In this document: piece by piece, positions 3,499 to 63,991 of the stretch
Position numbering within the stretch: the first letter of the stretch is position 1
How the letters are laid out: every line of letters begins with the position of its first letter
From: Asterochloris sp. CNOR1
Lineage: Eukaryota > Chlorophyta > Trebouxiophyceae > Trebouxiales > Trebouxiaceae
Reading direction: 5' to 3'
Assembly (NCBI GenBank): GCA_963969365.1
Contig: OZ017747.1
Span: 806,001 to 870,000, forward strand
Length of the DNA stretch: 64,000 bases
Position numbers and translations under genes: made by a program
The notes under the pieces: generated by a model
The model's input: the letters and a program-made list of their open reading frames with translations, nothing else
The model's database searches: none
Told to the model about the DNA's origin: nothing

Positions 3499-6400
3499 AT
3501 GCCAGCCCTTGCTTTGGCAGCAATGAACTTGCAGAGACCCCTGACTGACACTGTGGCAGCCAGCAAGACGTTTGCTCCTTTGCACAGGGGCTCCAGCTGG
3601 AGTCCATGCATGGAATTCTACCTGGCTGCTGCCTTTGGGCAAGAGGGACTGCGCCGTCTATCAGAAGCCCTCTGCCGGCCGCCACGTAGCACGTGCCTGA
3701 GGCTCAACACTCTGCACCACACCCTAGAGGTGCTCAATGCATTCTCTCATTGCCCGCACGCTGCAGAGCTCATGCAGCCTGCCAGCAGTCCATGACCATG
3801 TGTGCATCCACTCACCATCCCATGCAAAAGTTGTATACAGAGGGCTGGTCCCAGCCTGCAGCATTCCCAAACCGCATTGACTGTCATACGATACCCATGC
3901 AGGAGGTCAGGCACGAGCTGCAGCAGGAGCTCCAAGCCTCCAGCTGGCAGGCCCAGGCAGAGGGCAGGGTGGTGGACCAAGTACCTGAGGTGCCCCAGGC
4001 CATGCTGCTGCATGGAGGAGGGCAGCAAGACGTGGACTATGCGCCAGCACAAGGTGAGGCTAGGATGCCATGTTGATGAGCATCCAGCTGCTTCTTTCAG
4101 CAGCACCTCGAGTATCCTGGGCCTCTCACCTGCTGCTAACTTTGGCGGGCAGCAGCCCAGTGGTAGTCAGGGATGGCATTTGTGCAGCGGCCTGTGCTTG
4201 CCCAGCAGCCTTGACCTTGTGGCCTGCAGGGCGGGAGGTTGCTGTCAGCCGCAAGGCGGCTGAGGGCATTCTGAGGGGAGCGCACGTCTTTGTGCCTGGT
4301 GAGCGCTTGCAGTGCTCCAGTGCCTGAGCCAGAGTTGTGCTTGACTCTGTCCAGTCACTGCCTCAACACGGTATGGCAGATGAGCTCCTCTTCACAGTAG
4401 CATCTGGCCGCACCATGCCACCTCTGCCCTGCTGCGAGCATCGCGTACAGGCCAGGATTCCATGCTAGCCATACTTGAAGAAGATGCAGGTCTTGCGCTG
4501 TGCATCTGTGCAGGTGTTGTGGCAGCCAGTCGGGACATGAGCGTGGGGGATTTGGTGGCAGTGAGCACCATTCTGGAGCAGCCTGGCACCACGGGCGTGC
4601 CCCGAGGCGCAGTGCTGGGGGACGCAGCGGCTCCTTTGCTGGCGGCCGCAGACCGCTCTCACCTGCATCTTGGCAAGTCTGTGGCTGCTGAGTCACCGGC
4701 TTCGCTGTTGCTGTCAGGGCGACTCCGTGTGGAGGAGGCAGGGCCACATGTGTCTTGAGCTGTTGCATTCAGTGGGCCAAAAGTTGTCCCTCGCCCATGG
4801 TGCTCAGCAGCACTGCTTCCTTACATGGGTGCTGTGTAACTGCTGTAATAGCTGTGTTGGAGTAAATCACTCACGACATTCCAGAATGGAGGCGCCTCTG
4901 GGCAGGCTGCGGATGGGGGCAGTTCCCTCCCAGCCAGCAAAGCATCTCTGACAGTACTGCAACGTCTGCTTGGCCTGGACGTACAGGGCAGCATTTTGCA
5001 ATTCTGCACTGCATGAACATGTGAGGATGCACCAAGATGGCTGCAAGTCTGTTCAGGCTGGAGATGGGGTGCAGCCCCTCACACGCAAGAGCTGCATGGG
5101 AACTCTGGCAAAGAGTGAGCTTGCCCAGCACGGCGGCAGGCCCAGCAATGTGGCAGCAACCCGCAATGCAGCACTGCAGGTACCCTCTGAGCAGCACTTG
5201 CCCTGGCTGCAGGTCTTGGGAGGCTGGAGATGGGCCGCAAAGCCCTGTTCAACAAAACCCGAGGCGTTGCAGTCACCCTGCTGCAGCGGGCCTTTGAGCT
5301 GCCCCCTTGCAACGGCCTCCTGCCTGGAAAGCTCATGCTACAGAACCTGCCCAGCATCGTGGCCGCCCAGGCGCTCAGCCCTACCAGAGGCTCCCGGGTT
5401 CTGGACATGTGTGCGGCCCCTGGGGGTGAGTGCACAGCGCCAGCTCAATGGGCAATCCTCGGCGGATGCATGTGGTGCATTGCTGTGACCTGGTTGCTGG
5501 GCGGCAGGCAGGTGGCTGCTGGGGTGCAGTGTAGCCAAGAACCTGCAGGCCAAGCAGGGATTCACCCGACCCATGCAGTGCTGGACCTATGCGCTCCCAA
5601 TGCGTCTCAGTTGCCTGCTGTTGACCAGCTACTTTTCAAGCACGATGAGATGGAAAGGAAAAGTGCTTCAGCAGCAAACATTTCCCAAGGCACCCTCGTT
5701 GCGCTCTTCCATGCAGTCAGGCTCCCCACCAGCCTGGCCACAGCTGGCCTGCTACCCTTCTGAGCAGGAATGATGGTTGGAGCTGATCGTTGCTGCTGGT
5801 GCTGGCAGGCAAGACCACAGCGTTGGCAGCCCTGATGGGGGATGAGGGCACCATCATTGCCCTTGACCGCAGCCATGCCAAGGCGCAGGAGATCAGGCAA
5901 GTTGCCTGTTTGCCCATGCTGTGGTAGAGCTGCACGCCTGGGAGCATCACCTGCCTGCGCGGCCTTGACCAGTGCAGACAGCCCCAGGCTGCCTGCAGGA
6001 AGAAGGTGTGAGCCCATCCACATGCAGCATTTCCCCTTCATGCACAGTTGCACAGCAGGAAGAAGGTGTGAGCCCATCCACCTGCAGCATCTCCCCTTTA
6101 TGCAGAGTTGCACAGCAGGAAGAAGGTGTGAGCCCATCCACCTGCAGTATCTCCCCTTCACACACAATCACACAACAGGTAGAAGGTGTGAGCCCATCCA
6201 CATGCAGCGTCTCCCCTTCATGCACAGTCACACAACAGGTAGAGGTGTGAGCCCATCCACATGCAGCATCTCCCCTTCATGCACAGTTGCACAGATTGAC
6301 AAGACTGCCACTGTTGCCTCTAAAGGCCCTGGCTTCTGCCGGGCTTCAGCGGCTGAGCCAAGGCGCCACTTGTGCAAATCCCTGAGCAGCGCTAGTCACA

Positions 6401-7859
6401 GCATGCTCAGCCCCTGCTGCTGCCCTTTGGATTCTTCTGCACTGCAGGGATTTATCAGCTGAGCTGAGGTGCTCCAGCATAACAGCTTTCAAGATGGATG
6501 CCACTCAGGCAGTGCTGCGGCCTACAGCTCCCCCCACCACTGCCACCAGCCAGCCAGCAGGTGGCCCAGGAAGCCTGCCTGGCCCTCCACCATTGACACC
6601 GGGCGCAGCTGAAATCCCTGCAGAGTGGAGGCAGGGCATGCCCATGAGCATGAACCCCAAGGTCATGCGCAGGCAGGAACGCAGGGCTGAGGTGAGGCTT
6701 CAATGCGCTTCCAATGTGTTCTGATGTCCACAAAGTATGCATGGGCCTGCACACAGCAGTCAGGCGCCCACTACAATGGGGCTTCAGCTGTCCTTTCCCA
6801 GCCTGCATGGTGCTTTGCTGGCCCTCCTTGCCAGGCATCACCTGCCTGTGAGGCTGTGCTCATTGCTGCTGCAGATGTGCCGCCAGCTGGGAGTAGCCCC
6901 GCCCAAACAGCCAGTGGACATACAAGGCCCCACCTGCAGGGTATGTCCTGCAGCCGCCTTTCAACTTCAAAACAAGTACTGCCACAACATACTTGAGGGC
7001 ATGATGGTGTCCATCTGCAGCCCGAAGTAAGAATGCGGAGCATCAGTGGCTCTACCTGCCAGCCGTGTGCTGCAGCATGCCACACACTGAGCTCACACTC
7101 TCTAGGGCCTGCCTGCAGGTGGGATTTGAGCCTGCCAGCTTTGACCACATTCTGCTGGATGCTCCCTGCACAGGACTGGGCCTTCGGCCGCGCCTCATGC
7201 AGCATGCCACACTTGACTATGTGCTTCAGGCAAGTGGCTCGGGCAGATGCCTTGGGCAAGCTGATCAGGCTGCCACATGGAAGTTCCTTCCTGCCTCCCT
7301 CTGAAGAGACTCTGCTCAGTCACTCTGCTGGCTTCCAAGCTGTGGGTAAAAGCGACGCCATACACATGCCGGCCTTGGCTGATGTGATCCACGCTTTGAG
7401 ACCTGGTTGTTGCCTCTTGTGTAGACGGCAAGATACCAGCGCAAGCTCATCCGTGTGGCGGTGGAGCTGCTGAAGCCTGGGGGAACAATGGTATACAGCA
7501 CCTGCAGCATCAGCCCAGGTGAGCTGTCTTTTGCGTGTAGCACTGCCCTATCTGCTTGTGCCAATAAAGTATCTGCTTTTGCCGACATCTGGACTTTGCT
7601 CCTTCTAGTGCTGCCTGCCTGTGCTACAGCGGAAAACGAGGCCAATGTGGCGTGGCTGCTGAAGGCCTACCCTGAGATGGAGCTCAGCAGGCATTCTCCA
7701 GTGCTGGGTCAGCATGGCTTGAGTGGGCAACTCAGGCATCAAAATGGTGACCTGGAGGATTGGCTTACAACATCTCAGGCTGAGAGGGTACAGCGTTTTG
7801 ATCCCACTGCTGCTTTGGACACCATCGGCTTTTTCATAGCAAAATTCACAAAATCGTGA
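3499..7859 (+). CDS. NSUN6-type RNA cytosine-C5 methyltransferase with PUA domain
   Basis: Encodes a SAM-dependent RNA m5C methyltransferase of the NOL1/NOP2/Sun family, closest to NSUN6, which methylates certain tRNAs and mRNAs. Exons read 3499-3729, 3903-4053, 4230-4298, from 4514, about 5230-5425, 5809-5896, 6469-6691, 6875-6940, 7119-7229, 7425-7518 and 7630-7859, with phases that join. The N-terminus (FGQEGLRRLSEALCRPP) is followed by a PUA-like part containing ILRGAHVFVPG, then QNLPSIVAAQAL. The SAM site is VLDMCAAPGG|KTTALAALM, split by an intron. DAPCTGLG and YSTCSISP carry the two cysteines of the family (motifs IV and VI). The end DTIGFFIAKF matches the NSUN6 C-terminus. The exon between 4514 and 5230 is not fully resolved. 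Start 3499 is the first in-frame ATG; 3610 is an alternative. Two introns use GC donors (5897, 7230). Confidence 0.88.
5998..6296 (+). repeat. 60-b minisatellite inside an NSUN6-like intron
   Basis: Five head-to-tail copies with a period of exactly 60 b begin at 6001, 6061, 6121, 6181 and 6241; the last is shortened by one base. Each starts AGAAGGTGTGAGCCCATCCA (AGAGGTGTG in the last) and runs through CTCCCCTTCATGCACAGT. The array lies within the intron 5897-6468. Because 60 is a multiple of three it is open in several frames, which creates long but meaningless open frames on both strands. Confidence 0.95.
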
Positions 7860-7982
7860 TCAAAGGAGGGAGGGGACTGTCATGTGAGCTGCCCTCGAGC
7901 AGCTCAGTCAGGTCGCGTGTTCTGTTCCTACATGTTAGGGAGCTTCTCAGCGGGTGCATGTTCTGGAGAGCAATGACATGGC

Positions 7983-9120
7983 TCAAAGCCTGGCGCGCGG
8001 CTCGTCGCCATTTTTGACACCCAGCAGAGCAGCTTGGCGCTGCTTGATCTTCTTGAATTCCCGCTGGACATAATCTAACAACCCATCTGGATATGAAATG
8101 CTAGACCACTCATTCAAGTTGCCCGCCTCCCACCTGCAGAGAGAGTCACCAGTGTTGCTGCCCATGCGCTGCGCCTCCTATGCGACTGGCAATGAATGGT
8201 GGCCTTGTACTGCCTACGGACCCGTTGAAGCAGCAGCCAGATTGCGACCAGGCATAATCGCCAGGCTAGGCCTGGGCAGCTGAGCTCATTTGGTCCTGCT
8301 CGTTTGAGGATGATTGACTTCACAGCGTGAAAGATAGTCGACGAACTCCCTCACCTGGACATCAGGACCTTGGTGGTCTTGACATATGCCATCAGCTTCA
8401 AGAGTAGGGGCTCCACCTCTGCTGATTCTAGCAGATCTATGTGGTTGGTGATGGCATCAGCCGCTTTGTCGTTCAGCGGCTGCAGCACCTCCTTCATCCA
8501 GTGCCTGCACGAGCAGCGCTGTGAGCAAGCCTGCTCTGTCCAACAAGCAGAAGAGGTTTGCAGCGCCAGGCTGACAGCCCTGATGGGCTCAAAAGGTTGT
8601 GAAGAACATAGTCAGCGGATGCTTGCTTGGCACAGGTCCCCTCCAGGCTGCCCATTAGGCTGAGCTACTGCCCCCTAGATCCAAGACTCAGCCTCCTTCT
8701 CACCAGCCATGAAAGCAGGCCTACTGCAGGACGACTACCTGTAAGCCTGAGCTTCCTTCCCCTCAGCATCCTCTCGCACTGCCTGGATAAAGCTCTCCTT
8801 GGTGCCATCGGGGCTGTGCTGGCGCACCATGGCGTCAAAGGCGCTCTTTGAGGCAGTCACGCATGCCAGTAGGGGCCCATACAGGTCTCGGACCTGCTCG
8901 TTGATCCTGTCTATCTGCGCCTCGCGCTCCTTGGTTACCTTTGAGTTGTAATATGTAAACATGTAGCCTGCATGACTTAGCATGAGGTTATGGCACGCGG
9001 GCAGGTTCTGCTTGTGGATTCTTAGGCTGCATGGCCTGCATGCTGGGTCCGCCTTGGCATGCAGTCCAACTCACCTCCTCCTGCCAGCACCACTGGGGTC
9101 ATCTGCTTGATGACGTCCAT
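7983..9120 (-). CDS. Conserved 191-aa protein of unknown function
   Basis: Four exons join cleanly: 9120-9075 (MDVIKQMTPVVLAGG), 8967-8739, 8504-8355 and 8133-7983. Together they give 576 b, or 191 residues plus stop. All donors and acceptors are GT-AG. The short N-terminal segment (VVLAGGGYMFTYYN) is hydrophobic and may touch or cross a membrane. It is followed by a helical body with TKEREAQIDRINEQVRDLYG, LHWMKEVLQPLN-like HWMKEVLQPLN, NHIDLLESAEVEPLLLKL and a basic helix FKKIKQRQAALLG. From memory, similar uncharacterised proteins with an N-terminal membrane piece and the RINEQ..DLYGPLLA motif occur in algae and bacteria; no function is known to me. It is convergent with the NSUN6-like gene, with 123 b between the stops. 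Confidence 0.8.
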
Positions 9121-9960: not shown

Positions 9961-12900
9961 CTAAAATCTTGATACGTGGTGGTTTGCGCAGCCTCTGAAA
10001 GAGTCCTTCTCAATGATCACCTGCAGCGGCAAGTATCTCACTCGGGGCAGCCTTCAGGGACAATGTTCAGCAGGTGAGACCACCACGTTTGCAAGTGAAG
10101 TCACTGCCTCACCTCGTCGGCTGCCATGCGCTGGCCTCCGTGATTTCTAAACCAGGCCCACTTCAAGCGGTCAGGGCTGATCTCAAGCGTGCCCTGTGTC
10201 ATGAAGCGGCAAGAGGTCACACCGGGTGGCTGGTTGAGTGACTGCAGGACTGGCACCAGTCGATGTCACAGCTGCAACCCTTGCTCACATGTCCAAAGGA
10301 GGCCTCCCGGAATGCGCTCCATTCTGGCTGGTGCTGCGGGCAGAATGAGGGCTCCCCATCACGCATGCCATCCTGCAGTTCAGAGACATTTTGATGATGT
10401 TCACTGACATCTGAGGATGGATGTACCTGCCTGTTTTGCCAGCCCATGTAAACCTTGACCCTGGATTGTCAACCCGTCAGCGGGGTGTCCTGCTCAGCCC
10501 TGCACATGTCTGATCAGAAGCAAACAGAAGCAGTCCCTGGTGGTTGCCTCTCTGCAAGCAGTCTGCACAATCAAGAGCCTCTGCGTGCTGACCTGGGACT
10601 GGTAGGTGGGGCAGGCTGCCGGCCTGGGCATGGGGCACTGGGAGCCGTCAGGCGCATCGTCTACCCACACACGAGCCAGCTGCTCCAGGTTGCCTGCACA
10701 CACACAGGCTCTGTGATGCGCATGGCCCTCCCCCTTGTTGATCCACGAGGTGGGCAGCTTGCACAAAGAAGACTTCTTTAGGGCACAGGGCCTTCCAGAT
10801 GAGTAGCCCACAATACCCTTCTCACGAAGCAGGCCAGCTCACGGCCACCACCGAAATGCGGCTGGGCGGGCAATCGCCAGGCAAAGAGCTATCTGGACTC
10901 CCATCATTTGCATACAGCAGCCACAGAAAGGGTGCAAGCCGCACCTGCATCTCCAACTGTTATGTGTGTGATGCCACAGGCATCCACAGTATAGTTGTGC
11001 ACCCTGTTCATGCGCTCGTATCTGCAGGCAACGAAATGAAGCTGAAAATCACAGGTGCAGAACGCCTCAGGCATCCTTCAAGACTGCGGGATGCAACACT
11101 TACGCATGCACATGGCCTGTCAGCACCAGATCCACGCCAGCATCATAGAGAATTGGCCTGCAGCAGACCATTCATTCCTTGAGATCATGCCTAGCAAGAT
11201 GGCGACAGCCAGCAATGCAGTGGTGGCACCATGAAAGCACTGCCAGCATGCAGACAAAGCTCTGCTCACTCCACAGCTTGCCGCCAGCACTCCAGCTCCT
11301 TGAAATGATTCTGCACAGAAGGGGACTGGGATTAGTGTAATAACTTTGCATTTGTGACAGCAGCAGAGGCCACTCTGCGCATCTCATGCACAGCTCTGAG
11401 GGTCTGCTCAGAAGTCGCAAGACCCCGAGCTGCACATGTAGCAGAGCCAGCCGTACCCCCCAATTGCAACAAGCAGAGTAAGTCAACAATCAAGAGCAAC
11501 CCACAATGTAGGTGTTGTAGATGGGGGTGTGGAAGCCAACAATGAGGAAGGGGGTCTTTTTGCGGTTGAAAGCTTTGAGGTCCTCCTTGAGCCACACCAG
11601 CTGAGGGTCATGGGGCACTGTGCCCTGCTGGTAGTCATTGGGTTGGTTGGCATAGGGGTCTGCAGGGGCAACAGACAATTACACGGTGCGCATCGTGATG
11701 CAAAAGAGCACGCATCCTGGCATAGGGGGTGAAGGATGGGGTGAAAAATGGTGTACCGCAGCTTGCAGGAGCAGTGTTGGGGTGGCAAGGGATGCTGCAG
11801 CCAGCCACAGAGCGCAGCTACCCAACAGCGTCACACTCTACCGGGCCCAAGCTGGAGCTGATGCACCCCTCAGCATACACAGGGAACGGTGACAGGCAGC
11901 AACCGCCGGGTTCAGAGCTGGCCACACTCACTCAGCATGACTACATGTGCTGCCCCCACATCTGTGGAATAGTACAACTGGCTGTGGGAGCTGTTGTAGG
12001 GGCCCCTGAAGCGAGCCAGGTAGGAGGCAAAGAACTGCTCAGGCTGGCCGTCTGCCTGAGCTTCGATTTCTGCAGGCAGGCAGGGCGACAAGTGTATGGC
12101 ATTGCAAGCGAGAAGCATGCTGGCAAGACAACAATGCATAGTCAAGCTCCCCATTCACAGCTCACCATGGTTCCCAGGGATCATCTGCAGGCAGTGGCAC
12201 TCAGCTCAGCACCCGTTCTGTCAAAGCTTTGCGGCGCTGTGGAGCACCAGCCAGGCAGCTGTGATTGGGTACGCACCAGCATCGGTATTCTAGAAAAGAG
12301 GTTGGACACCATGCGCTGCCATCCGCTCCAGCGGGGCTGGTAGGTGCCATGCACAGCCCAAGACATGGCCTGCTGGCCGTCAGGCTGGTAGTCGTCTGCA
12401 GCCCACGTCCCAAGCTGTCAGAGGCAGGGCCAGGGCAGCTCTTGTTAGCCCTGGGCGGCATGACAAGCTCCCACATTGCCCGGTCAAGATGTGCTGGGCA
12501 GCTGAAGATGTGGGGGCTCTGCCTGCAGCAACAGGGCCTTTGCAGTGCGCCACACAGACAGTCCAAGCTCACCAGCATACGTAGCATCGCCAATGAGCCA
12601 CACCAGCTGGGGGTCAGACTGCTTCAGGTGGGCCAGTGTCTCACTGGAGTTGGCTGTGGCGCCCATGTCAGCCACGACCCCCACCCTGCAGGCACCAGAC
12701 GTGTGCAGTTGCCATGAACCAGGCGCACAGACTGGGCCATGCCAGAACGCCAATTTGGCACCAGCAGCGCTCTGTGCAGGCAGCCACACTTGTGCAGGGG
12801 AGGCAGCATGCACAGCTGCACCCTGCAAAGTTTCCCTCAGACATGTTGCCTGCTGCTGCTTGCACCTGACAGTGCTGGTGGGTTGCTGCAGGCCAACATG

Positions 12901-14417
12901 TTTGAACTCCAAGCCACCCTCAGTAGAGCAGCAGCATGCACAGCTCGACCCTGCCACAGAGGCTCTGCCTGCTGCTGCTCGCACCTGACAGTGCTGGTGG
13001 GCGGCTGCAGGCCAGTGGTCATGAACTCCAGGGCCTGGGTGCTGTTGCCGCCGCCATCGCCAACCGAATAGGTGTATGTCTGATTGGGCAGCAAGTTTTC
13101 CAGCTGCACATGGTGGATGATGGGGCTGCTGTACACCAGGCTTGAGTTGATGGGCACCTGCAGCAGCATGTGCCGCACTGTCACACAGGGCGTGCGATGA
13201 GTTTGAACTTCTGCATTTCATCAATTTGACATTGTGCGCCATGGGCCCAGACGAGAGCTGTACTTGAGCAGGCTGCCAGAAGCTGGTACCACTGCAAGCA
13301 GGGGGGCACGGGGAGCACAGCAAGCTGCTTTAGGGAGGCACTCTTGGTCATGGGCTGGCCAGCACTGCAGCAGTCTGCGCCAGCCCCACCTGTGTGTAGA
13401 CCTGCCGGTCGCTGCCTGTCACATTGGAGCTGGGCAGCGAGGCTGCGCCATATGTGACCACGGAGCCAATGCTGTCAGGGTCAAGCCTGGCCTCTGCTGC
13501 TGGCCCACTTTCTAGGGGCCCAGAACCACTGTACTCGTTGCCTGCACGCGGCGTGCACGCCTGAAGTCTACACAGATTTCAGTGTCATAGGCACTGGCGA
13601 CACCTTGTGCAGTGCATCTTCAGTGCGCAACTCTGTTACAGAGGCAGGCCCGGGAGAAAGCACAAGCTGTGCAGCTGTGGACATAGCAATCTGATGCAAG
13701 TTGGGTCTGCTGCCAGGCCTGCATGATGCACAAGGTGTGCAGCTGCACACACAGCGGACCTGTGCTCCATGACACCCACACCGAGGTTGGACTGTGGTAA
13801 TTGAGCAGCACCTGCTCTGGCTGGAAGCCCTCCACTGTCCGGGCCAATGGAGCCTGTAAGGCAGGCAGCGTGTCAGCACTGGCCCTTCAGCATATATCCA
13901 CCTCGAGCACCTCCGCTCACACCTCATCCAGTGGCATGTCAAAACCATCACCGGGGCCAGTGTCGCGATCGTAAGGAATGGCTGCAGCGTGGGACACCCT
14001 CAGCTCATAGCCATGCGAGACTGCAGTCCTATCTGCACAGCTGTCTTGATACCTGGCACGTAAGCTGGTGCACACCTTGAGGCTATGAGGGGCCTGTCAA
14101 GCAGCGGCTTCACCTCTTGGACTGTCTGGCACATAAGCTGGAGCAGGCCTGGGTGCTATGAGGGACACAGCAGCAGCCATAAGGGTGCTGATGGCCAGCA
14201 CTGCGAGAATGGCAGTGACCACAATGAGCACTGCAGAATTCTTCTGAGTGAAACGCTTCCATGGGGAACTGAAGCTGGATCGCTCCTGATCCAGCAGGGC
14301 AGTCTGCTCCTCCTCCTCAGAGGGCATGGTGCAGATGCACTGCTCAGTTTGGTGCTGCTCATCGATTTGTCCTTCTTGGCGTCTGTCCTTGTGAGGTGGA
14401 GGCCTCAGGTTCTGCAA
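9961..14417 (-). CDS. Purple acid phosphatase with N-terminal membrane anchor
   Basis: A dinuclear-metal phosphatase that hydrolyses phosphate esters at acid pH. The first exon carries an acidic cytosolic tail with EEEEQTALLDQE, then a hydrophobic anchor (VLIVVTAILAVLAISTLMAA). Next comes the fibronectin-like N-domain (PEQVLLNYHSPTSVWVSWST; SPIIHHVQLENLLPNQTY). All five metal-ligand blocks can be read: VADMG near 12665, GDATYAG near 12575, GNH near 12165, VGFHTP near 11540 and LTGHVHA near 11110, continuing as YERMNRVHNYT in the next exon. The C-terminus reads EWSAFREASFGHV, WAWFRNHGGQRMAADE and VIIEKDSFRGC, with stop at 9961-9963. About 15 exons. ATG at 14417 or 14327 could start the protein. 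It is divergent from the BRM-like gene. The anchor plus acidic dileucine suggests a vacuole- or Golgi-directed type II membrane protein (inference). Confidence 0.88.
12803..13040 (-). repeat. Diverged tandem copy of a phosphatase exon edge
   Basis: The exon end coding for ...PPTSTVR with its donor (copy 12966-13036) is repeated about 120 b downstream in the intron (12846-12914). Both contain GCACCTGACAGTGCTGGTGG on the plus strand and the same flanking GCAGCATGCACAGCT. The intronic copy keeps CACTGTCAG|GTGCAAGC at the place of the real CACTGTCAG|GTGCGAGC. Confidence 0.9.
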
Positions 14418-14660: not shown

Positions 14661-26728
<12,068 letters not shown>

Positions 26729-27300: not shown

Positions 27301-30300
27301 AAGAGAACCAGGAAGCCAGGCTAGCCTATCTCATTTGCAGTTTCACCTGCTGTCTTTGACCCTTGGCTGCTACCAGAGTCAGCAGCAGCGCCGTGCCCAC
27401 GGTGTACTGCAGAGATGCTCCAGTCATCACTGCGGACAGCTGGCGCAGTGTTGAGCCCAGATGCTGCATCACGCTCATGCCCAGCTGCCAGCAGCCTCTC
27501 AAAGGCAGGGCCGCAGGCGGGCGCCCTGCGCTCAGCCGCCTCATCGTCCTGATTGTCAGCCGCCTCATTGTCCTGAACCTGGCCAGCCCAGTCTGCATAG
27601 CATGATATGGCACTCACAGACTACGCTGACTTCAAAACGTTACTTTCACAAGACAGGATCTGTCATGGGCAAGACATGCTGCAGTTTGCAGCTGAGAGCT
27701 GACAAAGTACTTCAGCAGGCGGGACAGTCGCACCTGACACAACATCTCCTTCGGCTGCAACCTCTTCCTCCACGGCAGCCTGCTCCTCCTCCTACTGTAC
27801 AGCGGGGGGGGCAGATGTTGCGCCCATTCTCACACTGTTCTGCCACCAGCAGCGTCTCCAGGGCCTGACGGGCATGTCGTCATTGCTGCAGGTGCTTCAA
27901 GGTGATGCCCTGCGCGGCAGCCCTTGCACCATCAGCGCGAGGGCAGCAATGTCCATCCCCAGGTGCCAAGGCAAGCAGTCCAACAAACAGGGGCCGTTCC
28001 GACCTTCTGCCTGGTCCAGAGCTCAGGTTGTTGCAAATCACACAGGGCACGCTGCAGCTTAAAAGCAGCTGCGGGAGGGATACACGCGTAGATGCACAGG
28101 CACATACTGTCACCTGTAGCCCAGTCTGCTCTGCTCAGCGCCATGTAGTGTGATGTCGCCCCTCACTTCAGGCAGGTCACCGCCCCGCATGTTCTGCAGC
28201 TTGTGCCCGCATGCACCAGGTAAAGCCGTCCTGCCACCCTTGCATGCTGGCAGCGTCCAGCCAGTGCCATGCGCTTGGGCCCCTCACCCCACTTGAGTCG
28301 GTGCCCAGCATGCCCTGCGGCTCTGCTTTGATGCACCTGGTGACACCAGCTGTGCTCAGCTCTCGTCAAGGGCTCGTGCCGCTCACCTCACTCGAGTCGC
28401 CATCTGCGTCGCCGCCCATCATGTCCTGCAACTCTGCCCAGACACCCTCCGGATCGATGGGCAGGTCCATGATGACGCTGTGCCGCTGGGTCAGCTTGCG
28501 CACGTCTTCAACGGTCAGGGTGCCGCTGGGGCAGACTGTGCGCCACAGGCGACGCAGCGTGGGCAGGTGCAGGCTCCCTGCAGAGCAGTGGCTTGTTGCT
28601 GAGGGCTGCATGCTTGCAGGGTGGCAGAGCCAGTATGCAGGTGCACGCACACTTCAGAGCAGGAGCTTTGTTTGAAGGCTGAGACTTATTTGCGTTGCAG
28701 AGAGGACCTAGCAAGCGGACTATGTCAGGCCTCTTGCTTGCCTCCACCACCCCAGTCTTCAAAGCATAGCCAAGACGCCGTCCCCGGAACAAAGCTGGCC
28801 AAGCCATGCAAACCCATCAAGGGGCTGCACAGGAGCTGTCGGGCTTACAGAGCATCCCAGCTATGCGGCAGAGGCTGCTAGGCTCATGCAGCATAGGCTG
28901 TGCTCAGACCCAGTTGCTGGCCTGCAGGTGCATGTGGACTCAAACTGACAGCAACCCAACTCGGGGGAGGGGCTGCTGACCTGGTCATGCAGCATAGTCA
29001 CCACCATCTGGTGCACATGATGATACACTGACAGCAACCTACCTGGTGGGCAAGGGCTGTTCAGCTCGTCAGGCACGATGGCGCCCACCAGCTGGCGCAC
29101 CCACCAGGGCATCAGCCTCCAGGCTGCACTCCCGCAGCTGGCCCAGCGCCCGCTCGAAGTCGTCAGCAGCCGCCTGGGCCTCTGCGGCCTCCTGCTCAGC
29201 AACATTTCTCGCGTGCACCAAGCTGCAGGGGCAAAAGCCAGTGTCAGACATCATGTCGTGTCGGGCCATTCGCTCACTGCACAGACGCTCTGCCTCCTGC
29301 TCACCCCTGGCCTGCACCAGGCTGCAGGGGGGCACACAAGCGTCAGGCACATCTCAGCGCTTACACTCTGTTCCAGCAGCAGTGAGCTCTCCCTGCTGCT
29401 CCAGCAGGCCTGCGTGCCCGCATTAGGCGGCAGGGGCACACAACAGTGTCACACGTCATGTAAAGTCCCACTCAGTCCCACTTGGGACCCCGCCAGCTTG
29501 GTCTGCCTTTTGCTTGATGTCTCTGCGCACCGTCTCTGCGCGCCTTCTCCAGGCATGCACAGCTGCCAGCCTGTTATTTAGTATCAGATATCTTGTATGT
29601 CAGCACTCAGCGTCTGTGCCGGCAGAGAGGCACTTTGCCTCCCGGCATGCATGTGTGCCTGCTGCACCAGCCTGCATAGTCACAGACCAGTGTCAAGCTC
29701 CATGCCCGCAACAGGCTCTGTACAAAGCAGACATGGCGCTCTGGCCCCTGCTCGGCATCTCTGGTCGCCTGCACCAGGCTGCAGGCGCACAGACCAATGT
29801 TGGTCTTCATGTCAGCAAGTCATGTGTGGTCAACTGCCTCAGCTGCTGCCTGGCGTCATTGTGTGCCTGCAGCAGGACATCAATAGGTGCCAGTGTCAAT
29901 TCTTGATGCGCTGCCACTGTGGCAGTCCTCCTTCTTCAGGCAGCGCTGCACACGAATGCGATGCTGCAGGGGTGCATGACAAGGTCAGAGAGACGCCCAC
30001 GTGGGTTCTGTCTCTTCGCGACGATGTCATATTTTACCTCAGGCTGCAAGCCCGCAGGGCAGACACAACAGGGATCCAACTCTCAGGTGCTGCCCTGCTG
30101 GGGCAACTTTGATGCGCTGACATGCTGCATTCAAGCAGCCCGGCAAGGGACTTCATGCCTGTGCTACACCTTGTCGACCTCAAGGGCAGAAGGTCAGGCA
30201 GACTGAGCAAAGATGCCCATTCAAATAGTTGACATCAAGCTGCCCTGCCAGCTTCTGAGCGCAGCCCAGCATATGACAACAAGCTGGTTTAAGGTCACGC

Positions 30301-36508: not shown

Positions 36509-36532
36509 GCTGAGTAAATGGAACTGATGCAG

Positions 36533-44227: not shown

Positions 44228-45308
44228 ATGCTGTCATATATTGCACATGCCATATGGCAGCAATTAGATGGTGCAGACCTGTGGCTGCAGGGCATTGAGG
44301 CCATCCCCATGTTGGAGCAGCTTGGCCTCCCATTCAGGTGGACAGCTTTGCCTATTGCAGCATGGGAGCTATGCTGCTAGATCCTCAGCACCTGACCTAA
44401 GCAGCAGGATTCTTGACATCTCTGGTCACTGTGCCTGCAGCTTTGTGTGCCTCACGCATGCCTCAGCTCTCACTCTGTGCAGCGTACAGACAGCTGAAAC
44501 ACCCCCCATCTGACCTGCAGCTATGTGCGCATCCAGTCCACGGCATGTGAGCAGCACCGCTTTGAGCACCTGATGAACGATTTGGATGCAGACCTGCTCA
44601 TTAACCTGGCGCTGGGCCGCAGGTGAGCTGGCAGCAGCTGCATGCTGCTGAGTGAGACCAGACTGCAGGTGGGGCTCTGCAGCAGCAGTGCCCTTCACTG
44701 CAGGGCTGCACATGAGCCTTGATGCGCTGCCTGAGACTGACTGATGCTGGGCCGCCGGCGAGCTTTGAAGCTGCTTGCTGCTGAGGGGTTGGGCTGCAGA
44801 TGAGCTGCAGGACAGCTGTATGCTGATGCTGCTGACTGACATTGGGCCATAGGGAGTTCTTTAGTTGCCTGCCACTGGCGCTCTTGGCCACTCTGGCTGA
44901 GGTTGTGACGCTGAAAATATTTGGAGAAGAGTATGCTTGCTGAGCCCAGAAGAGGGTGCCTCCCTGCCCCTGAAAGTAGACAGCAGCAGCTTGTGCACAC
45001 ACTCAAGCATGTGTGACTGGATGCCCACCTGCTGCAGGTGTCTTGTCTGGGACTATGGCTCAAGGTCCCGTCGTGACGGAGTCCCCAAAGCACTCTGGTA
45101 TGGGATTGAGTTCATCAAGTATGCTCTGCGGCGACAGTGGCTGGGCAGGTGCCAGCAGTGCTGGCTGAGGGGCCGCCCCGCTGCCAAACAGTTTGAGAGA
45201 TATGTCACTGGCTTCAGCGACCTCACCAAGAGGTGCGCCTGCACTAGGCTGCTGAACTCCCAGAACAATAAAGAGAACATTGAGCCGCACCCTAGTGCAG
45301 GAGACTAA
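44228..45308 (+). CDS. Unrecognised conserved-looking protein
   Basis: Three exons join in phase: about 44228-44337 (AIWQQLDGADLWLQGIEAIP, then MLEQLGLPFS), 44517-44622 (YVRIQSTACEQHRFEHLMND, LDADLLINLALGR) and 45039-45308 (CLVWDYGSRSRRDGVPKALW, YGIEFIKYALRRQWL), ending NNKENIEPHPSAGD. That gives about 160 residues if ATG 44228 is the start, but 5' exons may be missing. The sequence is compact and amphipathic, without signal peptide or membrane segment, and has a charged tail. Aromatic-rich VWDYGSRSRRDG and LWYGIEFIKYALRRQW look like a folded domain, but I cannot name the family. The second intron is full of copies of the preceding exon edge. Confidence 0.55.
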
Positions 45309-45643: not shown

Positions 45644-45712
45644 TGATGGGAGCTCATGCATGGTGGTCAGCAAGCATTTCTAGCAGACAGATCTGATTCA
45701 AAAGGGATGGCG

Positions 45713-47872: not shown

Positions 47873-49912
47873 ATGGGCAATCCATCACAGGACCCTTTCT
47901 ACCTTGTCAAAGATGACATTCAGACCTCAGTGAGCATGCTGCTTAGCTCATGCCCTGCTCACAGCTTCACATCCTCAGGCCCAGCGAACATAAGTCACAG
48001 TGTCCCCTGACAGTTACACCATCCTGCGCGTGCAGCTGTCCAAGGCCCAGGAGAAGTTTGCACGGTGGCAGGGCCTCAGCAAGGGCAGCAGCGACCGTAA
48101 GCGGCTGGAGCCAGAGATAGAGGACGAGTGCAAAAGTATTGCCTGGCAGGTAGGCAACTGGGCCAGCTGTGCTGATGCCAGCAATGGCCGAGGTGTGATG
48201 CCAGCAGGTGAAGCATCTGTGGGCAATGGCTCAAGTTGTGCTGCAGCCAGAGGTGGACAAGTCAGCATCTGGCAGGCGGGCTGCTCACATGCAAGAGACT
48301 AAAGTCTCTATTGTTGCTAAGAAATGCATGCTCCCTGTGGAGCACCAGGAGCACTGCCTGGCAGATGCGGTGCTGTGCAGCCAGCCGTGACGCTAGAGCA
48401 GGCGGCTGCCTTTCTGCGTGTGCAGCAGGGCGCCAGCTGTGTGAGGCCAGGAAGAGGACATCAAGTGCAAAGAGCAGTGCCTGGCAGGTGGACTGCTGTG
48501 CTGCTGGTGGCAGGCCTGGGGAGCAGGGTCATCAGGGTCCAGCCCAGTCCCTCTCTGAAGCACAGTGCAACAGCAGTGAGGTTGGACTGCTGCATGCTGC
48601 TGACTGCATAAACTGTTTGGCTGCAGCATCTAGAAAGCGAGGCCCCGCCAAAACCCCATCAGCGGGCACTTATGGTCACAGGTGTGTGACTAAGTCCCAA
48701 GCTGTATGGCTTCAGGTTGACGAGATGGACAAGGCTGTGGACGTGGCTGAGAAGCGGATGAACCAGTTTGGCCTTACGATGCAGGAGATCCGTAACCGCC
48801 GTAACTGGGTGCATGCCACCCGCAGGACGGTGAGCCCGATTTATCTAATCAAGTGTTTCGATCCTGGAGGGAGCTCAGGCTGGCGGCAAGATGTGCTGCT
48901 GAATGCCATGCGGGACAAGGTGCATGGCATCCTAGAACAAGGCAGTCGCTTGTGTGGAGGAGCCGAGTGAGTGTCAAGCCGGCAGAGCAAAAGCTGCTGG
49001 TGGTCGCCTCTTGGGATGCGGTGCCTGCAGCCCGTAGCACGGTGCACATCGATTGCAGTGGAGCTTGTGGCAGCAGCAGGCCACCTGCAACCTTCCTCGG
49101 TCAGGCAGGAGCTCCTCCTTGTGGGCAGTGTGCCAGGGATTGCTGCTTGGTGTCATGGAGGTCTTTCTCCCCCGCTGCTACCTGCAAAGCAGCGGTCTTT
49201 GCTAAAGGCTGAAGCTGCTAAGCAGGGATGGAGGTCTGGTGTAACATCAGTCATGCATCTGCAGGTAGACACCATGCAAGGGTCAGTGGAGGCTGCCCAG
49301 CAGATCGCCAGCAAGGTGGCCCAGCCCAGCACGGCCACTGGCAGACTGGGTGCAGCTGTACAGCAGGACAATGATCGCTTCCTGGGATCAGAGCAGGAAC
49401 GGCAACAGATGGTGATGCGGTGAGTGGCATGCTGCAGCCTGAGCAGTGGCCCCGTCAATGCTGCCCATGCTAGCTGGCCCTCATGTCCTGAAGGCCTTGT
49501 CCCCCACATGCCACACCAGCACATCAACAGCGTCTCCCCCATTCCTTCTCTTCACACGTGTTGCTCCATTGGCACTGGGTCAGGAGGCGGGGTGCTCAAC
49601 ATGCATCCAGGGCTTCTCATGGCTCATCCAAGCCCGCAACTGTGCAGGCGACAGGATGAAGATCTGGATCAACTAGGGGACCAGGTGCAGCGAATAGGGC
49701 ACATGGGCCTCCAGATCAATGAGGAGCTGACCAGTCAGAACGATCTTATAGAGCAGTTGGACGAGGATGTAGAGGGAACATCGAGTCGCCTTGCAGCAGC
49801 GCAAAAGAAGATGAACTCTGTTCTGAAGAAGGCTGGCCTCAAAGGCCAGATCATGATCATCGTTTTCCTGCTCGCTCTGCTCATCATTCTGATTCTTATT
49901 GCCTTTAGCTAG
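47873..49912 (+). CDS. SYP61: SYP61/syntaxin-6-type Qc-SNARE
   Basis: A trans-Golgi/endosomal membrane-fusion protein. Five exons join in phase to 235 codons: 47873-47929, 48036-48149, 48716-48829, 49265-49419, 49648-49912. The N-terminal DPFYLVKDDIQTS and LSKAQEKFARWQGLS align with the syntaxin-6 N-domain start of plant SYP61. Next are VDEMDKAVDVAEKRMNQFGL and RNRRNWVHATRRT. The SNARE motif (DLDQLGDQVQRIGHMGLQI, NEELTSQNDLIEQLDEDVEG) carries the zero-layer Q in SQND. A C-terminal anchor (IMIIVFLLALLIILILIAF) ends at the stop. Acceptor 48036 was chosen over an in-frame upstream open stretch because only it keeps phase and aligns with the family. The intron 48150-48715 carries copies of the preceding exon edge. 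Confidence 0.93.
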
Positions 49913-50018
49913 GCGTAAGCATGTCAGAAAAGCTGCAGCCAGTCTGGAGGTCAAGGGGTAGACCATAACATGCACAGCCACTCTGGCATCTGGAGCAAAT
50001 TGACTGGATTCTCCCAGC

Positions 50019-53000
50019 TCACTGACGCAGGCTGCCAGGCAGGAGGGACTGCGAGTCTTCGGCATGCAGAAAACTCTCCTGGCTGACGTGCTTGTCAGGC
50101 ATGTCAATGACAGTGTACCCAGGCGGCAGGGGCTGGCTGGCCTGCAGGGCTACAGGGCTAGCTGCCTGGGACCACGAGGGGATCTGCAGCTCTGGGCTAC
50201 TGGTCCGCTGCTGCTGCCCTGTGGCATGCAGAGGCGGCAGCTTGCCGCCCCTGCCCTGCGTGCCACGGGAGCCGCTGCTGCTCTGGGACTGAAGGGGGTC
50301 GGGCCCCAGGGCTGCAGCGCTACTTGCTAAGGCTGCAGCAGGCAGCCCCTCCTGGCTACTCTCCAGCAAAGCCTCCTTCTGGAGGCCCCCCTGGCTGCCC
50401 TTGCCTTCCCGCCTGCCCAGGATCTGGTGCAGGCCAGCTGCCCCCATCATGTACTCGGCCATGCTGCTGTACTTGGCTTTGTTGACGACAGGGCCCTGCT
50501 CCAGCGACCAGGTGCGCCGCTTCATGCGCAGGGCTGTGCAGGGGTTGAGCTGCACGCTGGGCCGACGCTGACGATGGCCCTGCAGGACCACACTGTCAAG
50601 CCTTGTCGACTGTTAAACCAAGGGCAGCAGCTGACATGCTGCACTTCATCTCTGGTGATGGGCCTGCAGCATCTCCTTTGAGTATTGTTGGCTGCCAATT
50701 CAGGGACAGCAGCTGACATGCTGTACCGCAATGACCCTGCAGCAGCTGTTGACTGTCAGCACAAGGGCAGCAGCTGACATCCCGCTGTGGGCCTGCAGAC
50801 GGGTAACGTGGACCTTCTGGATCAATCCCAGCTTGGCAGGGGCCTGGTCACTGCTGGTGGATCAGCAGCATCACACAGGGGGTGCATGTTGGCTGAGTCA
50901 ACCAGAGAGGCAGCGCACAGCGCTGGCAGTGAGCCTGCAGCACCACGCATGACCCAGTGCTGACAGCCACTTGAGATCCTCACCATGGTGCAGTGCACCG
51001 GGGGCTTCTATGAAGACTATGTGCACCCTCAGGCGCCCTCTTAAGCCAAGACCCTCCCTGTGCCCTGGCAAGCTCAGTGAAAGGATATGCACAAGGGCCG
51101 GTATTGCACTGATGCCACACGCAATGCCAAAAACTCCTTTACTTCCTCGAGCTCCATCCCCACCTTTTTGCAATGCCTGCCACTGCTATGCAACGAATTC
51201 AGTCCTGCATGGCAGATGCTTACGGTGGCACCCGCGCCCCCGGTGGCTTGCCCATTCCCGCCACCAGCGTTTCCCGTCACGTCCGGCAGTATGCGCAGCT
51301 TGCGGCAGCAGTTGGTGGTGGGCGCTGCACGCTCATGGAATGAGCCTGTTGCAACAGCCTCGCGCTGGGCCAGCTCCCTGCGTGCTAGGATGTAGTCATA
51401 TGTACTCATCCCCTTCCACAAGAGGACACCATGGAAGGCCAGCAGCTCCCCCAGCAGGCTCAGCAGCGCTGCAGACAGGATAGAATGTTGCTTGAACATC
51501 GTGTGCAGAAGCTGGCAGCACTGCAACCAGAAGGCAGCGGGCTGTATGCATGGAGTGCAGGCGCAGGCAGCATGACAGACAGGGGCCAACCTGCTGTGTT
51601 GAGCATTCCAGCAGCACTGCAGGCAGGGACTCTGCATGCCTGGGGTACATGGCACAAGCAACAGGCAGGCCACCCTGGTGTGCAGAGTGCTTCAATCGCA
51701 GTGCTTGTGCGAGGAGGCCAGCAGCACAGCATGCAGTGGCGTGTCCCTGAGGTGCAATGTGGGCGAGACAGACTTTGCTGGGCCAGCTTACAGGCTCTGA
51801 TGCATTGATCACCGCCTTGGGCAGCCCGGAGACTTGAGCTGCGATGCAAGGCAAAGAAATTTGCACTGTACAAATGTGCTGGCAGCACTTCTTTGTGCGC
51901 CTGTCAGGCTACGCGCACCTGCTGGCAGGGCTGTCAGGATGCACAACACCAACCCCGATCTGACAAGCTGCACTGACCTGACTGACTGATGGTGGGTCAC
52001 CATAGACACATCAGTGGACGATGTGTGCAGCAAAAGCAGTCCCAGATATTGTGTGCTTCCACATTGCATTGCTTGCCAGCTGCTTCGTACCCTGTGCAGC
52101 TGAGCTCACCTGCTGGCCAGATGGTGTCAATGCGCCGCACCTTCAGGGCTCAGCTCTGCGCTAAGTGCTATGCTTGTTCTTAAGTACGCAGCTGCTGCGG
52201 TGAATTACCTGCTGCGCCTAAAAGTGGGTATGAGCAAAGCATCCAGATGCTACCTTTCAGCGCACCTGTAGGTAGGGCAATGTAGATGCACCACACCACG
52301 CGGAGGCCGTTCAGGCTAATACCCCCGCCATACACCGTACGCTGCCTGTGGCGCGCAGCTGCCTTGTGGGTGTAGCTGGCTGCCACCAGGTAGACACCAA
52401 AAAACAGCTGGAACATCATCAGGGCCACTGCCGTGCACAGCAGAGCCAGGAACTTGCGGTAGTTGGCGGCGCCGATGCAGTTGTTCAGCCACACGCAGTG
52501 GTGCTGCATGGCAAAGGAGCTCCAGGCTTGTGAAATGCGTGCAGAACAAGGCATCAGCTGCAGCATATGCCGCTGATGAGCCAATGCACTCGTGTTGTTG
52601 GGAGGCAGCTGTAGAGTGTGCGCAGTCCTTCAGCCACATGCAGCGCTGCTGCAGCTTGCAGTGGTTCAGTAGCATGCAGCAACTCTGCAGGGCAACGTGG
52701 GAGCATGCAGGATGTGCAGCATCACACGGGCAGATCTCAGGTCAGCTGCAAACACTTGCACACAGCTTGTTGAAGAACAATAGCTCGGCAGCATGCCAAG
52801 CAGCAGCAGTACATGCAAGCAGGTGCACATAATCTTGCTGGACGCAGCGGACCCTCTCAGATGCACTCCCTCATGTCTGATAGCAGGACTTGATATAACA
52901 TCTGCAACCTGAGCTACTCACATCAAACTCATCCACGCAACGATCGCACTTCCTGCAATGCTTGCTGCGCTTCCTGACTTGAGCCTGCAGGCAGCAGCAG

Positions 53001-53584: not shown

Positions 53585-53854
53585 GCCTGCGCATTGGAGG
53601 CTATTCAGCATGGGCTGCAGGTCCTTCATAACCTGCAGTGCCATGCGGAGCAAGCTCCTAGAGTAGGGCTGTCACACCATAGAAGGTTCCACTGCGGCAT
53701 GTCAGACTCTAATCACTCAGTGCCCAGCTTGTGATAGTGGCTCAGCCAAGGTGAATATAAATCTGACCTAGGTCAGCATGTTGTGCTGCGCTTGACAGTC
53801 AGATCTGGGGTGGACAAGCTTGCTCATAGAGCTCCTGCCAGCACTGTGCAGTAA

Positions 53855-56800: not shown

Positions 56801-57634
56801 CTTTATAGTGGTGCAACGTCATGCCAGCAGCTGGAAAGTTATTGTCGTCTCCCAGATACATCAGCAGATCTTCATGTATCTTGTGTTCAGCGCTTGTCAG
56901 GCATAGTGCGGGCACAGTAACCCATTTTGAGCACAACTGAAGTGGGCCCAGGTAGTGCTGCCACCTCATGCCAGTCAACCACAGACTTCAGTGCCTGTGG
57001 GGGCATCTTCCTGGGGCACTAGCAGATCTGCATGCGTGGTGTGTCGAGCGCCTAGTGGTGCATGCTGACAGGCAACGGGGGGCTAGGGGAGCAGAGGACC
57101 TTCAGGTGTGAGAACTTTGCCTGATTATGATCAGCTCACAGCTGGGCCTGACTGCTGCAGCCAGCACCCGCAGCCACACGAAAATACTTCATGCTTCAGC
57201 TGCAGGTGCTGAGCATTCTTGTGCATGCGGCAGCGTCTGGGCAACTGACACAGCTTGCTTGTCTGGAAGCTTGCGCGCCTGGTGCAACATGCCATGTAGC
57301 AGCCATTCTGAGCTCGTTTGCTGTGTATGTCTTGCAGGGCGCTGTGTCTGACCCCACCATTCTAGACTACAGCGATGTGGAGCTGGCAGACCTGAAGTTT
57401 CTAGACGACAATCCCATTGTCGTCACCAGGTTCACGGTGCAGCAGATAGACTGCGCCAGAGACAAGTACGGCAATGTGGTGGAAGGCAGCCCAGACACTG
57501 TGCAGAAGTGCTTCTACTTCTGGGCTCTCCAGCAGGACAGCTCAGGGTTTGTTGGCGCAGATGGCAAGCACTACCCGCCCCGCTTTCAGGTCAAGGAGAT
57601 GTTGGTGCAGGGCATGGTGAAGCTTCTGGGATGA
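53855..57634 (+). CDS. TIM44: TIM44, matrix-side subunit of the mitochondrial import motor
   Basis: Tethers mtHsp70 to the TIM23 channel for protein import into the matrix. The short first exon 53855-53884 (MSCQLLRAGQ) joins in phase to 53963-54051 (LLRQGLVAQQQRQAGNVSSF, LKQVREQLAR), giving an Arg/Gln-rich, acid-free start typical of a mitochondrial presequence. Then NPELKKGLDSVKQ (about 54127-54172), SDATQTLRRAAETAKQTASQ, a Gln/Ala-rich linker (about 54578-54850), IPGWKRHWRDMQAK (to about 55557), MFKGLWDRTASLRKSKVVEK, and the C-terminal TIM44 domain: DISDSWATESEPAQVLREIR, DPNFDMIRFLYDLRADVP (to about 56670), then ILDYSDVELADLKFLDDNPI, QKCFYFWALQQD and VKEMLVQGMVKLLG (57340-57634). The start is inferred from phase and presequence character. 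Introns carry several exon-edge copies. Confidence 0.9.
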
Positions 57635-63886: not shown

Positions 63887-63991
63887 CTGCAGGTGCAGCG
63901 CTGGCAGTCAACCTTTAGTTTCCGCAGACAATTGTAAACAATGGCAGGGCGCCCAACACTCCCCCCAGCGACCGCCTGCAGGGGCAGCGCT
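63851..63991 (-). repeat. Duplicated acceptor of the GGLGDV exon at the right edge
   Basis: The acceptor and first codons of the exon at 63851-63902 are repeated at 63939-63991 with an offset of about 88 b. Both contain CCTGCAGG followed by GCAGCGCT on the plus strand and GGCAGGGC(A/G)CCCA on the exon side. The distal copy has lost the reading frame. Confidence 0.9.

What the first reader, a model, noticed from the sequence alone, without database searches (positions are those of the whole stretch)
5056..63991. Systematic 'exon-edge echoes': introns contain diverged tandem copies of adjoining exon ends with their splice sites
In at least eight genes the intron next to an exon carries one to five diverged copies of the exon's last or first 20-70 b plus the splice-site context, in the same orientation, commonly 80-180 b away and sometimes up to about 300 b. 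Donor-side cases: phosphatase, BRM exons 12, 13 and 15, syntaxin exon 2, TIM44, the 44.2-kb gene, the coiled-coil gene. Acceptor-side cases: BRM exons 17 and 19, TIM44, starch synthase (three places), NSUN6 (5056-5080 against 5221-5245). The recurrence in unrelated genes suggests a general process in this genome: repeated local tandem duplication across exon borders that lengthens introns and seeds decoy splice sites. Tandem duplication is an established model for intron origin, but such a dense record of decaying copies is not something I know to be described.
Basis: partly seen in the sequence, partly recalled or inferred. Interest (0 to 1): 0.85.

Follow-up and report, generated by a model that had tools for sequence, protein, structure and literature searches.

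The report
Old tandem duplications lengthening algal introns
Introns of this green-alga-like genome carry many worn copies of the neighbouring exon ends, apparently left by small tandem DNA duplications that were mostly made long ago, a fossil record of how introns can grow by stretching at their edges.

Summary
In 314 kb (window plus 250 kb from two other contigs) there are 203 pairs of local direct repeats at 30-400 bp. Shuffles leave 2-4 of 76 pairs in the window and 4-8 of 109 in the C1 sample. Exon ends match their own intron in 38 of 610 donors and 37 of 610 acceptors, against 0.23% and 0.37% for other genes' introns. The window is richer (17 and 14 of 124) than C1 (19 and 21 of 394) or C6 (2 and 2 of 92).

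The interpretation changes in three ways. (1) No border targeting is needed: border-blind simulations give border/intron ratios of 0.85-2.0, observed 1.15-1.18. (2) Introns lengthen but are not born this way: 0 of 459 reach the intron-gain signature. (3) The record is old: 1 of 77 intron-intron pairs scores 30 or more, against about half under a constant rate.

Best reading: an old wave of small tandem duplications in which border-crossing events survive because the outer splice site keeps the protein intact. Open: two simulation misfits, and few pairs outside genes. A new variant of a known kind; no relatives or RNA data.

The parts
5038..5239 (+). NSUN6-like gene: acceptor echo (5038-5073) of exon start at 5213, offset 166
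   Evidence: 36 nt, 81% identity; RsmB/F methyltransferase + PUA domains
12847..13030 (-). Purple acid phosphatase gene: donor echo 12847-12911 of border 12985, offset 119
   Evidence: 65 nt, 85%, echo keeps GT; SW score 72; Pfam PF16656/PF00149; only other match in the whole genome is its own exon end
20683..20899 (+). BRM-like SNF2 gene: donor echo 20870-20899 of the exon ending at 20726
   Evidence: SW score 32
21490..21596 (+). BRM-like SNF2 gene: donor echo 21567-21596 of the exon ending at 21518
   Evidence: SW score 32; protein runs on across this junction in the BRG1 alignment without insertion
22580..22802 (+). BRM-like SNF2 gene: donor echo 22745-22802 of the exon ending at 22634, offset 165
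   Evidence: SW score 76; no insertion in the protein at this junction; only other match in the whole genome is its own exon end
23438..23566 (+). BRM-like gene: acceptor-side echo 23438-23482 near border 23556, offset 84
   Evidence: 45 nt, 73%; border placed by the gene finder only
24847..24988 (+). BRM-like gene: acceptor echo 24847-24888 of exon start 24954, offset 99
   Evidence: SW score 42, echo keeps CTGTGCAG
25554..25748 (+). BRM-like gene: acceptor echo 25554-25596 of exon start 25718, offset 152
   Evidence: SW score 34; 43 nt, 70%
28158..29818 (-). Coiled-coil gene: echoes at borders 28194, 28386, 28578, 29089, 29223; a five-copy family at 29208-29818
44606..44785 (+). 44.2-kb gene: donor echo of the GCTGGGCCGCAG|GTGAGCT exon end
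   Evidence: SW score 50, best of up to 300 random places in the window 40; gene not modelled by the gene finder, border read by eye
48140..48453 (+). Syntaxin gene: weak donor echo 48407-48453 of the exon ending at 48192
   Evidence: SW score 32; Pfam STX6_10_61_N and SNARE
51913..52695 (-). DHHC palmitoyltransferase gene: donor echo 51913-51951 of border 52266; acceptor echoes 52622-52653 and 52657-52695 of border 52504
   Evidence: Pfam PF01529
55519..56933 (+). TIM44 gene: donor echoes 55704-55747 (border 55558) and 56882-56933 (56671); acceptor echo 56257-56288 (56443)
   Evidence: scores 34, 48, 48; Pfam PF04280
59153..62803 (-). Starch synthase gene: acceptor echoes of 59196, 60172, 61807, 62564; donor echoes of 60002, 61583, 62406
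   Evidence: scores 44, 40, 56, 32; 38, 52, 34; Pfam PF08323

Best explanation
The echoes are eroded small tandem duplications (spacing 30-200 bp in 78% of pairs, up to the 400 bp searched) that hit genes without regard to exon borders. Shown: the repeats are direct, local, present in all three samples, mostly old, and found at exon edges and inside introns alike. Inferred: a unit that crosses a donor or acceptor leaves two candidate splice sites; using the outer one (upstream donor, downstream acceptor) restores the old mRNA, so the event adds its whole unit, exon piece and spare splice site included, to the intron and survives. Units that would add bases to the exon are mostly removed unless in frame. 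The exon original stays nearly frozen while its copy drifts, so exon-edge events stay readable longer than intron-intron ones. Inferred too: most events date from a past period, and the duplication rate relative to substitution has since fallen steeply. The likely molecular route is end-joining of staggered breaks after fill-in, which is known to give small tandem duplications; that step is not tested here.
For: Direct only: near-band excess over far lags, none for inverted repeats, 0 and 1 mirror repeats in W and C1; shuffles give 2.1-3.5 pairs against 76 in W and 4.0-7.6 against 109 in C1. Own-intron test. Echo rate falls with depth into the exon. Four echoes searched against the whole genome match nothing outside their own locus (two of the four found their exon partner, two only themselves). 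Selection filter: border-to-intron pairs 57 against border-to-exon 7 where random placement expects 29.0 and 14.7 (p=5e-5 with pairs taken as independent); exon-exon spacings are multiples of 3 in 16 of 18 (p=2e-6), while II (28 of 79) and BI (16 of 57) show no frame. Unit-wide homology: the rest of the unit is still significantly similar in 59% of testable II pairs, against 12-27% in short-copy simulations and 44-73% in tandem ones of uniform age or K=0.2-0.3. Border-blind simulation: 0.85-1.13 against 1.15 observed. Age: score >=30 in 1 of 77 II pairs, against 50-56% under constant rate; 60 implanted fresh duplications raised the count of such pairs in C1 from 7 to 66. Spectrum exon to echo is ordinary, Ts/Tv 0.97, no C>T excess per site. 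The BRM protein is continuous across two echo-bearing junctions.
Against: Outside the aligned cores the same-diagonal identity is at baseline (0.255); gapped coverage of the unit is 0.55 at the median against 0.68-1.0 in simulated tandem units; and by a stricter per-pair test the remainder is significant in only 38% of 173 pairs (chance 5%), below the 67-74% of tandem simulations, most clearly for high-identity cores (37% against 73-87%). So some pairs may be short copies, or units cut by larger indels. Old-age simulations expect exon-only matches to outnumber border-spanning ones 1.5-1.8 to 1; observed 0.60, which I cannot explain. Their border/II ratio reaches 2.0 at one of the settings that fit the II scores best, which the observed counts reject (p<0.001), so border events would be in deficit there. 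Outside predicted genes pairs are scarcer than random placement expects: 3 pairs touch intergenic DNA against 15.6 expected, 1 against 8.0 with both copies there (only 23 kb, short segments), so the process may favour gene bodies. Borders rest on ab initio models. The age argument assumes an ordinary neutral clock in introns.
Confidence: 0.71

Rival explanations
1. Border- or gene-targeted duplication: a process tied to splicing or transcription (for example nicks at R-loops) duplicates exon edges, or gene bodies, preferentially.
For: Border-to-intron pairs are twice the random-placement expectation (57 against 29.0; p=3e-7; 23 against 11.6 in W, 34 against 14.9 in C1, 0 against 2.3 in C6). 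Pairs touching predicted intergenic DNA are scarce (3 against 15.6), which fits a gene-linked process.
Against: Random placement is the wrong null for tandem units; border-blind simulations with selection and a slow exon give 0.85-1.13, not different from 1.15 (p 0.09-0.94 for the settings), and 1.2-2.0 when young ages are left out. 79 of 203 pairs are purely intronic. The intergenic sample is only 23 kb.
Confidence: 0.12
2. Tandem genomic duplication creating introns (Rogers/Hellsten model): the echoes are remains of intron birth.
For: Same kind of mutation; tandem duplication is an accepted intron-gain route (PMC3443670).
Against: That model puts the repeat on the diagonal equal to intron length, donor region against acceptor region: 0 of 459 introns reach 36 of 80 matches, mean 22.28 against 22.38 in controls; 7 of 459 reach 33 where controls predict 4.
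Confidence: 0.04
3. Short local copies (20-60 nt) made by template switching or filler synthesis, with an unduplicated spacer, not whole-unit tandem duplications.
For: Median core is 37 nt at median spacings of 110-166 in II, BI and EI pairs; many high-identity cores lack flank similarity.
Against: 59% of testable II pairs have significant similarity in the rest of the unit, against 12-13% for simulated 20-60-nt copies and 27% for 20-100-nt copies; uniform-age short copies also predict 38-44% of scores >=30, observed 1 of 77.
Confidence: 0.15
4. Chance or local composition (TGCAG-rich, skewed GC-rich introns) mimics repeats.
For: Splice consensus and CTGCAG-rich sequence give some free matches.
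Against: Dinucleotide shuffles leave on average 2.1-3.5 of 76 and 4.0-7.6 of 109 pairs, and none at score 25 where 17 and 23 are observed; far-lag control about 10 chance pairs expected in W and C1.
Confidence: 0.02

Closest known systems
Small tandem duplications at staggered breaks (end-joining after fill-in; Schimmel et al. 2021, PMC8355091, abstract and introduction read)
   Same: Direct, local, small units; [quoted passage not shown]
   Different: There studied as fresh mutations; here an old eroded layer with spacings to 400 bp, few young copies, and a high share crossing exon borders; break intermediates not observable
[quoted passage not shown] Hellsten 2011; Gao and Lynch 2009, known through PMC3443670 and PMC4974935, passages read)
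   Same: Tandem duplication in genes with duplicated splice-like signals
   Different: No new intron: repeat diagonal is not intron length; existing introns would lengthen
Potato RdRp duplication crossing an intron-exon boundary (PMC4974935, passages read)
   Same: Duplicated unit crosses an acceptor border, as in the acceptor echoes here
   Different: There a single case that produced a new intron; here 91 exon-to-intron pairs (BI+EI) in 314 kb, lying inside the old intron according to the gene models
Introners (PMC9860276, start of abstract in a search listing only)
   Same: Intron-related repeated DNA; occurrence in green algae is recalled
   Different: Introners insert copies in many genes; four of four echoes searched match only their own locus

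Membership tests
Small tandem duplications | Direct orientation, local | tested here: met
   Direct excess at 30-400 bp, no inverted excess
Small tandem duplications | Homology over the whole unit, head to tail | tested here: inconclusive
   Clearly above null (38% of 173 against 5%) but below simulated tandem units (67-74%); median gapped coverage 0.55; 59% of testable II pairs by the test
Small tandem duplications | Breakpoint microhomology / end-joining dependence | not testable with these tools
   Too few young copies: 2 arrays of period >=30 with >=90% match in 314 kb
[quoted passage not shown]
   0 of 459 introns at >=36/80
Introners | Dispersed similar copies in introns of many genes | tested here: not met
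   Four of four echoes searched genome-wide match only their own locus (the tool skips very common words); far-lag matches at 3-25 kb in W and C1 are few, 44 in 447 million cells
Repeat-induced point mutation of duplicates | C>T/G>A-dominated divergence | tested here: not met
   Per-site rates C>T 0.117, G>A 0.104, A>G 0.133, T>C 0.135 in 91 pairs

The most novel reading that the evidence does not exclude
This lineage went through a period of intense small tandem duplication that has since largely stopped, and introns acted as a ratchet: border-crossing events were absorbed by the intron, so a large part of present intron sequence, including stretches that were once exon, is eroded local duplicate. 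From the detection rates (0.37 for a short burst, 0.05 for long activity), 77 II pairs, a mean spacing of 125 bp and 187 kb of intron, the II events alone would account for about one seventh of intron length up to essentially all of it. This is a model-bound extrapolation.
Probability: 0.35. Interest if true: 0.72.

Novelty: new variant of a known kind. Interest (0 to 1): 0.52.

Why it matters
Where intron sequence comes from and why introns lengthen is often discussed through transposons (my recall). Here introns appear to grow from their own borders, with a readable record and a natural clock, since the exon original is nearly frozen. It gives a quantitative null (border-blind duplication plus outer-splice-site rescue) that can be tested in any genome, a source of decoy splice sites, and a hint that small tandem-duplication rates can change sharply over evolution.

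Tried and rejected
Border-targeting, intron-gain signature, RIP-like hypermutation, composition artefact and pure short-copy models were tested and set aside as described. Selective erosion of echo splice sites: identity at the echo GT columns (0.81, 0.85; n=27) and AG columns (0.79, 0.93; n=29) is not consistently below the neighbouring columns, so no selection against decoys is seen; small numbers, and the matches were chosen for similarity. Single-base lag autocorrelation was dropped as too sensitive to composition; it showed an excess for II and EE pairs but none clear for EI. The 53 of 56 intron-side count is partly true by construction and is not used; the BI against BE contrast is used instead. 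Intron length with echo 401 against 228 without (medians) is not used as proof, since longer introns are larger targets. Nine of ten literature searches listed no paper whose title or abstract start describes such a record; the library lacks most subscription papers and only listings were seen for most hits.

Rows dropped before counts: low-complexity matches, overlapping matches, arrays with match length >=1.6 times the spacing; and the statistics also the minisatellite pairs at 5995-6294 (II 79 to 77). Exons under 20 nt were treated as intron and the introns round them merged; introns under 70 or over 1500 bp were left out (610 used; 729 predicted). Own-intron counts are blind to introns split by doubtful predicted exons (for example NSUN6 5213).
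Full report
What was examined. The window is G000:C2:806001-870000 of a 56.4-Mb, 21-contig genome. A hidden-Markov gene finder trained on these 314 kb gave 52 genes, 777 exons and 729 introns, with donor CAG|GTGAGC and acceptor CTGCAG|G. Pfam confirmed window genes: RsmB/F methyltransferase with PUA, purple acid phosphatase, SNF2, syntaxin, DHHC, Tim44, starch synthase (7 of 11 model proteins given, some shortened). The BRM protein segment aligns over 335 residues to BRG1 with no insertion at the two echo-bearing junctions looked at, 21518 and 22634. The gene finder has known faults: it missed the 44.2-kb gene and a GC donor near 23145.

The repeats are real. Ungapped direct matches are strongly enriched at spacings of 30-400 bp and fade by about 600 bp; inverted matches are not enriched. 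After filtering there are 203 pairs (76 window, 109 C1, 18 C6). Dinucleotide shuffles in 60-bp, 150-bp or whole-sequence blocks leave on average 2.1-3.5 pairs in the window and 4.0-7.6 in C1, and none at score 25 where 17 and 23 are observed; mirror matches 0 and 1 (C6 not shuffled). Far-lag control in W and C1: 44 hits in 447 million cells, about 10 expected by chance in the near band. C6 alone has extra matches at 600-1000 and 5000-6000 bp, so it holds some non-local repeats; these were not followed.

Exon edges (60 exonic bases plus 10-15 intronic) against their own intron and against 30 length-matched introns of other genes: donors 38 of 610 at score >=32 against 0.23%, acceptors 37 of 610 against 0.37%; reverse-complemented queries give 4 and 5 of 610 (controls 0.24% and 0.36%), and 0 and 1 at >=34. 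67 of 610 introns and 27 of 52 genes have an edge echo. Own-intron similarity falls with depth into the exon: 45/939 at the edge, 10/719 at 40 nt, 1/475 at 80 nt, 0/286 at 120 nt. The window is unusually rich: donors 17/124 against 19/394 and 2/92, acceptors 14/124 against 21/394 and 2/92. Four window echoes searched against the whole genome match nothing but their own locus; two of those searches did not find the exon partner either, so the tool is not very sensitive.

Where duplications fall. Classes of the 203 pairs: II 79, BI 57, EI 34, EE 18, BE 7, BB 5, with intergenic parts 3. Random placement expects II 70.1, EI 48.5, BI 29.0, EE 20.7, BE 14.7. Pairs that add to the intron are thus kept and pairs that add to the exon are depleted (BI against BE, p=5e-5 with pairs taken as independent). 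Exon-exon spacings are multiples of three in 16 of 18; codon periodicity may add to this. Spacings of II and BI pairs show no frame. Pairs touching predicted intergenic DNA are scarce, 3 against 15.6 expected, in 23 kb of mostly short segments. I cannot tell whether this is a real gene-body bias.

Is the border special? A tandem unit of about 120 bp often crosses a border simply because introns (median 240) and exons (median 126) are short. Simulated border-blind duplications, with coding-breaking events removed and exons evolving slowly, give (BI+EI)/II of 0.85-0.89 and 0.88-1.13 with splice consensus held; observed 91/79 = 1.15 (p 0.09-0.94 over the settings). When young ages are left out the prediction is 1.2-2.0 (observed 1.18 after dropping two minisatellite pairs); 2.0 is rejected, p<0.001. 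No border targeting is required, and a deficit from selection against border-crossing events is possible. Against this fit: the old-age simulations expect more exon-only than border-spanning matches (EI/BI 1.5-1.8), the reverse of the 0.60 observed.

Tandem units or short copies? In 59% of testable II pairs the rest of the unit is still significantly similar, against 12-27% for simulated short copies and 44-73% for tandem units of uniform age or K=0.2-0.3 per copy (12% and 2% at K=0.4 and 0.5). By a stricter per-pair test over all classes the figure is 38% of 173 pairs, below simulated tandem units (67-74%). Gapped coverage of the unit is 0.55 at the median against 0.68-1.0 simulated, and same-diagonal identity outside the cores is at baseline. 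Eight alignments looked at by eye include one with a 20-bp indel breaking the diagonal. I read this as mostly whole-unit duplications broken by indels and later events, with a minority of short copies possible.

Age. If duplications arose at a steady rate, about half of detectable II pairs should score 30 or more; 1 of 77 does. Over all classes 17 of 203 do, the window minisatellite included. Implanting 60 fresh duplications in C1 raised the count of such pairs from 7 to 66, so they would not be missed. A model in which activity stopped at about 0.25 substitutions per site per copy roughly fits the II scores (0.49/0.18/0.10 simulated, 0.42/0.13/0.01 observed at 20/25/30) and the exon-to-intron scores less well (0.63/0.38/0.23 against 0.58/0.22/0.10). 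Loss of young repeats alone cannot explain the gap, because at a constant birth rate loss leaves at least as many young as old survivors; a fall in rate, or unusually fast early divergence, is needed. The substitution spectrum is ordinary, which speaks against hypermutation of duplicates. Only 2 arrays of period >=30 with >=90% match were found by Tandem Repeats Finder in 314 kb.

Splice sites in the echoes. 19 of 27 donor echoes keep GT and 22 of 29 acceptor echoes keep AG; 11 and 14 score above the lower quartile of real sites, far above random intronic GT/AG (6.1% and 3.6%). Decoy potential is therefore real in sequence terms; use in RNA is untested.

Known context. Small tandem duplications are described as the most common short human insertions and linked to break repair (PMC8355091, abstract and introduction read). 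Tandem duplication is one of the accepted intron-gain routes (PMC3443670, passages; PMC2891723, passages; PMC2809761, passages), and one potato case crosses an intron-exon boundary (PMC4974935, passages). What I did not see in the listings of nine searches is a dense, mostly old, border-rich record of this kind.

Verdict. Observation confirmed; interpretation partly supported; a new variant of a known kind. The part that would surprise a specialist is the near-absence of young copies together with the number of old ones.

Noticed in passing
L014 about 2340-2830 (G000:C1 about 1122340-1122830): A unit of about 95 bp holding what looks like a 42-nt mini-exon with both splice sites is present five times with spacing of about 79-115 bp: probably a whole-exon tandem duplication.
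   Followed up: partly
window 5995-6294: 60-bp minisatellite, five copies at 89% match, in an intron region of the NSUN6-like gene.
   Followed up: no
window 14952-15259: 81-bp coding tandem repeat, 3.8 copies at 76%, in the N-terminal part of the BRM-like gene model.
   Followed up: no
window 23067-23145: BRM-like exon that appears to end in a GC donor (GGCAG|GCAAGT, read by eye); the gene finder cut it short, and the longer reading aligns to BRG1.
   Followed up: partly
L013 about 2566-2729 (G000:C1 about 1112566-1112729): Youngest clear border-crossing duplication: 79-bp unit, 2.1 copies, 94%.
   Followed up: no
   Followed up: no
predicted intergenic DNA of all three samples: Local repeat pairs are scarce there: 3 against 15.6 expected by random placement, a possible gene-body bias.
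   Followed up: partly
C6 sample, L022-L026: Extra direct matches at 600-1000 and 5000-6000 bp (7 and 9 at score 25), so some non-local repeats lie there.
   Followed up: no
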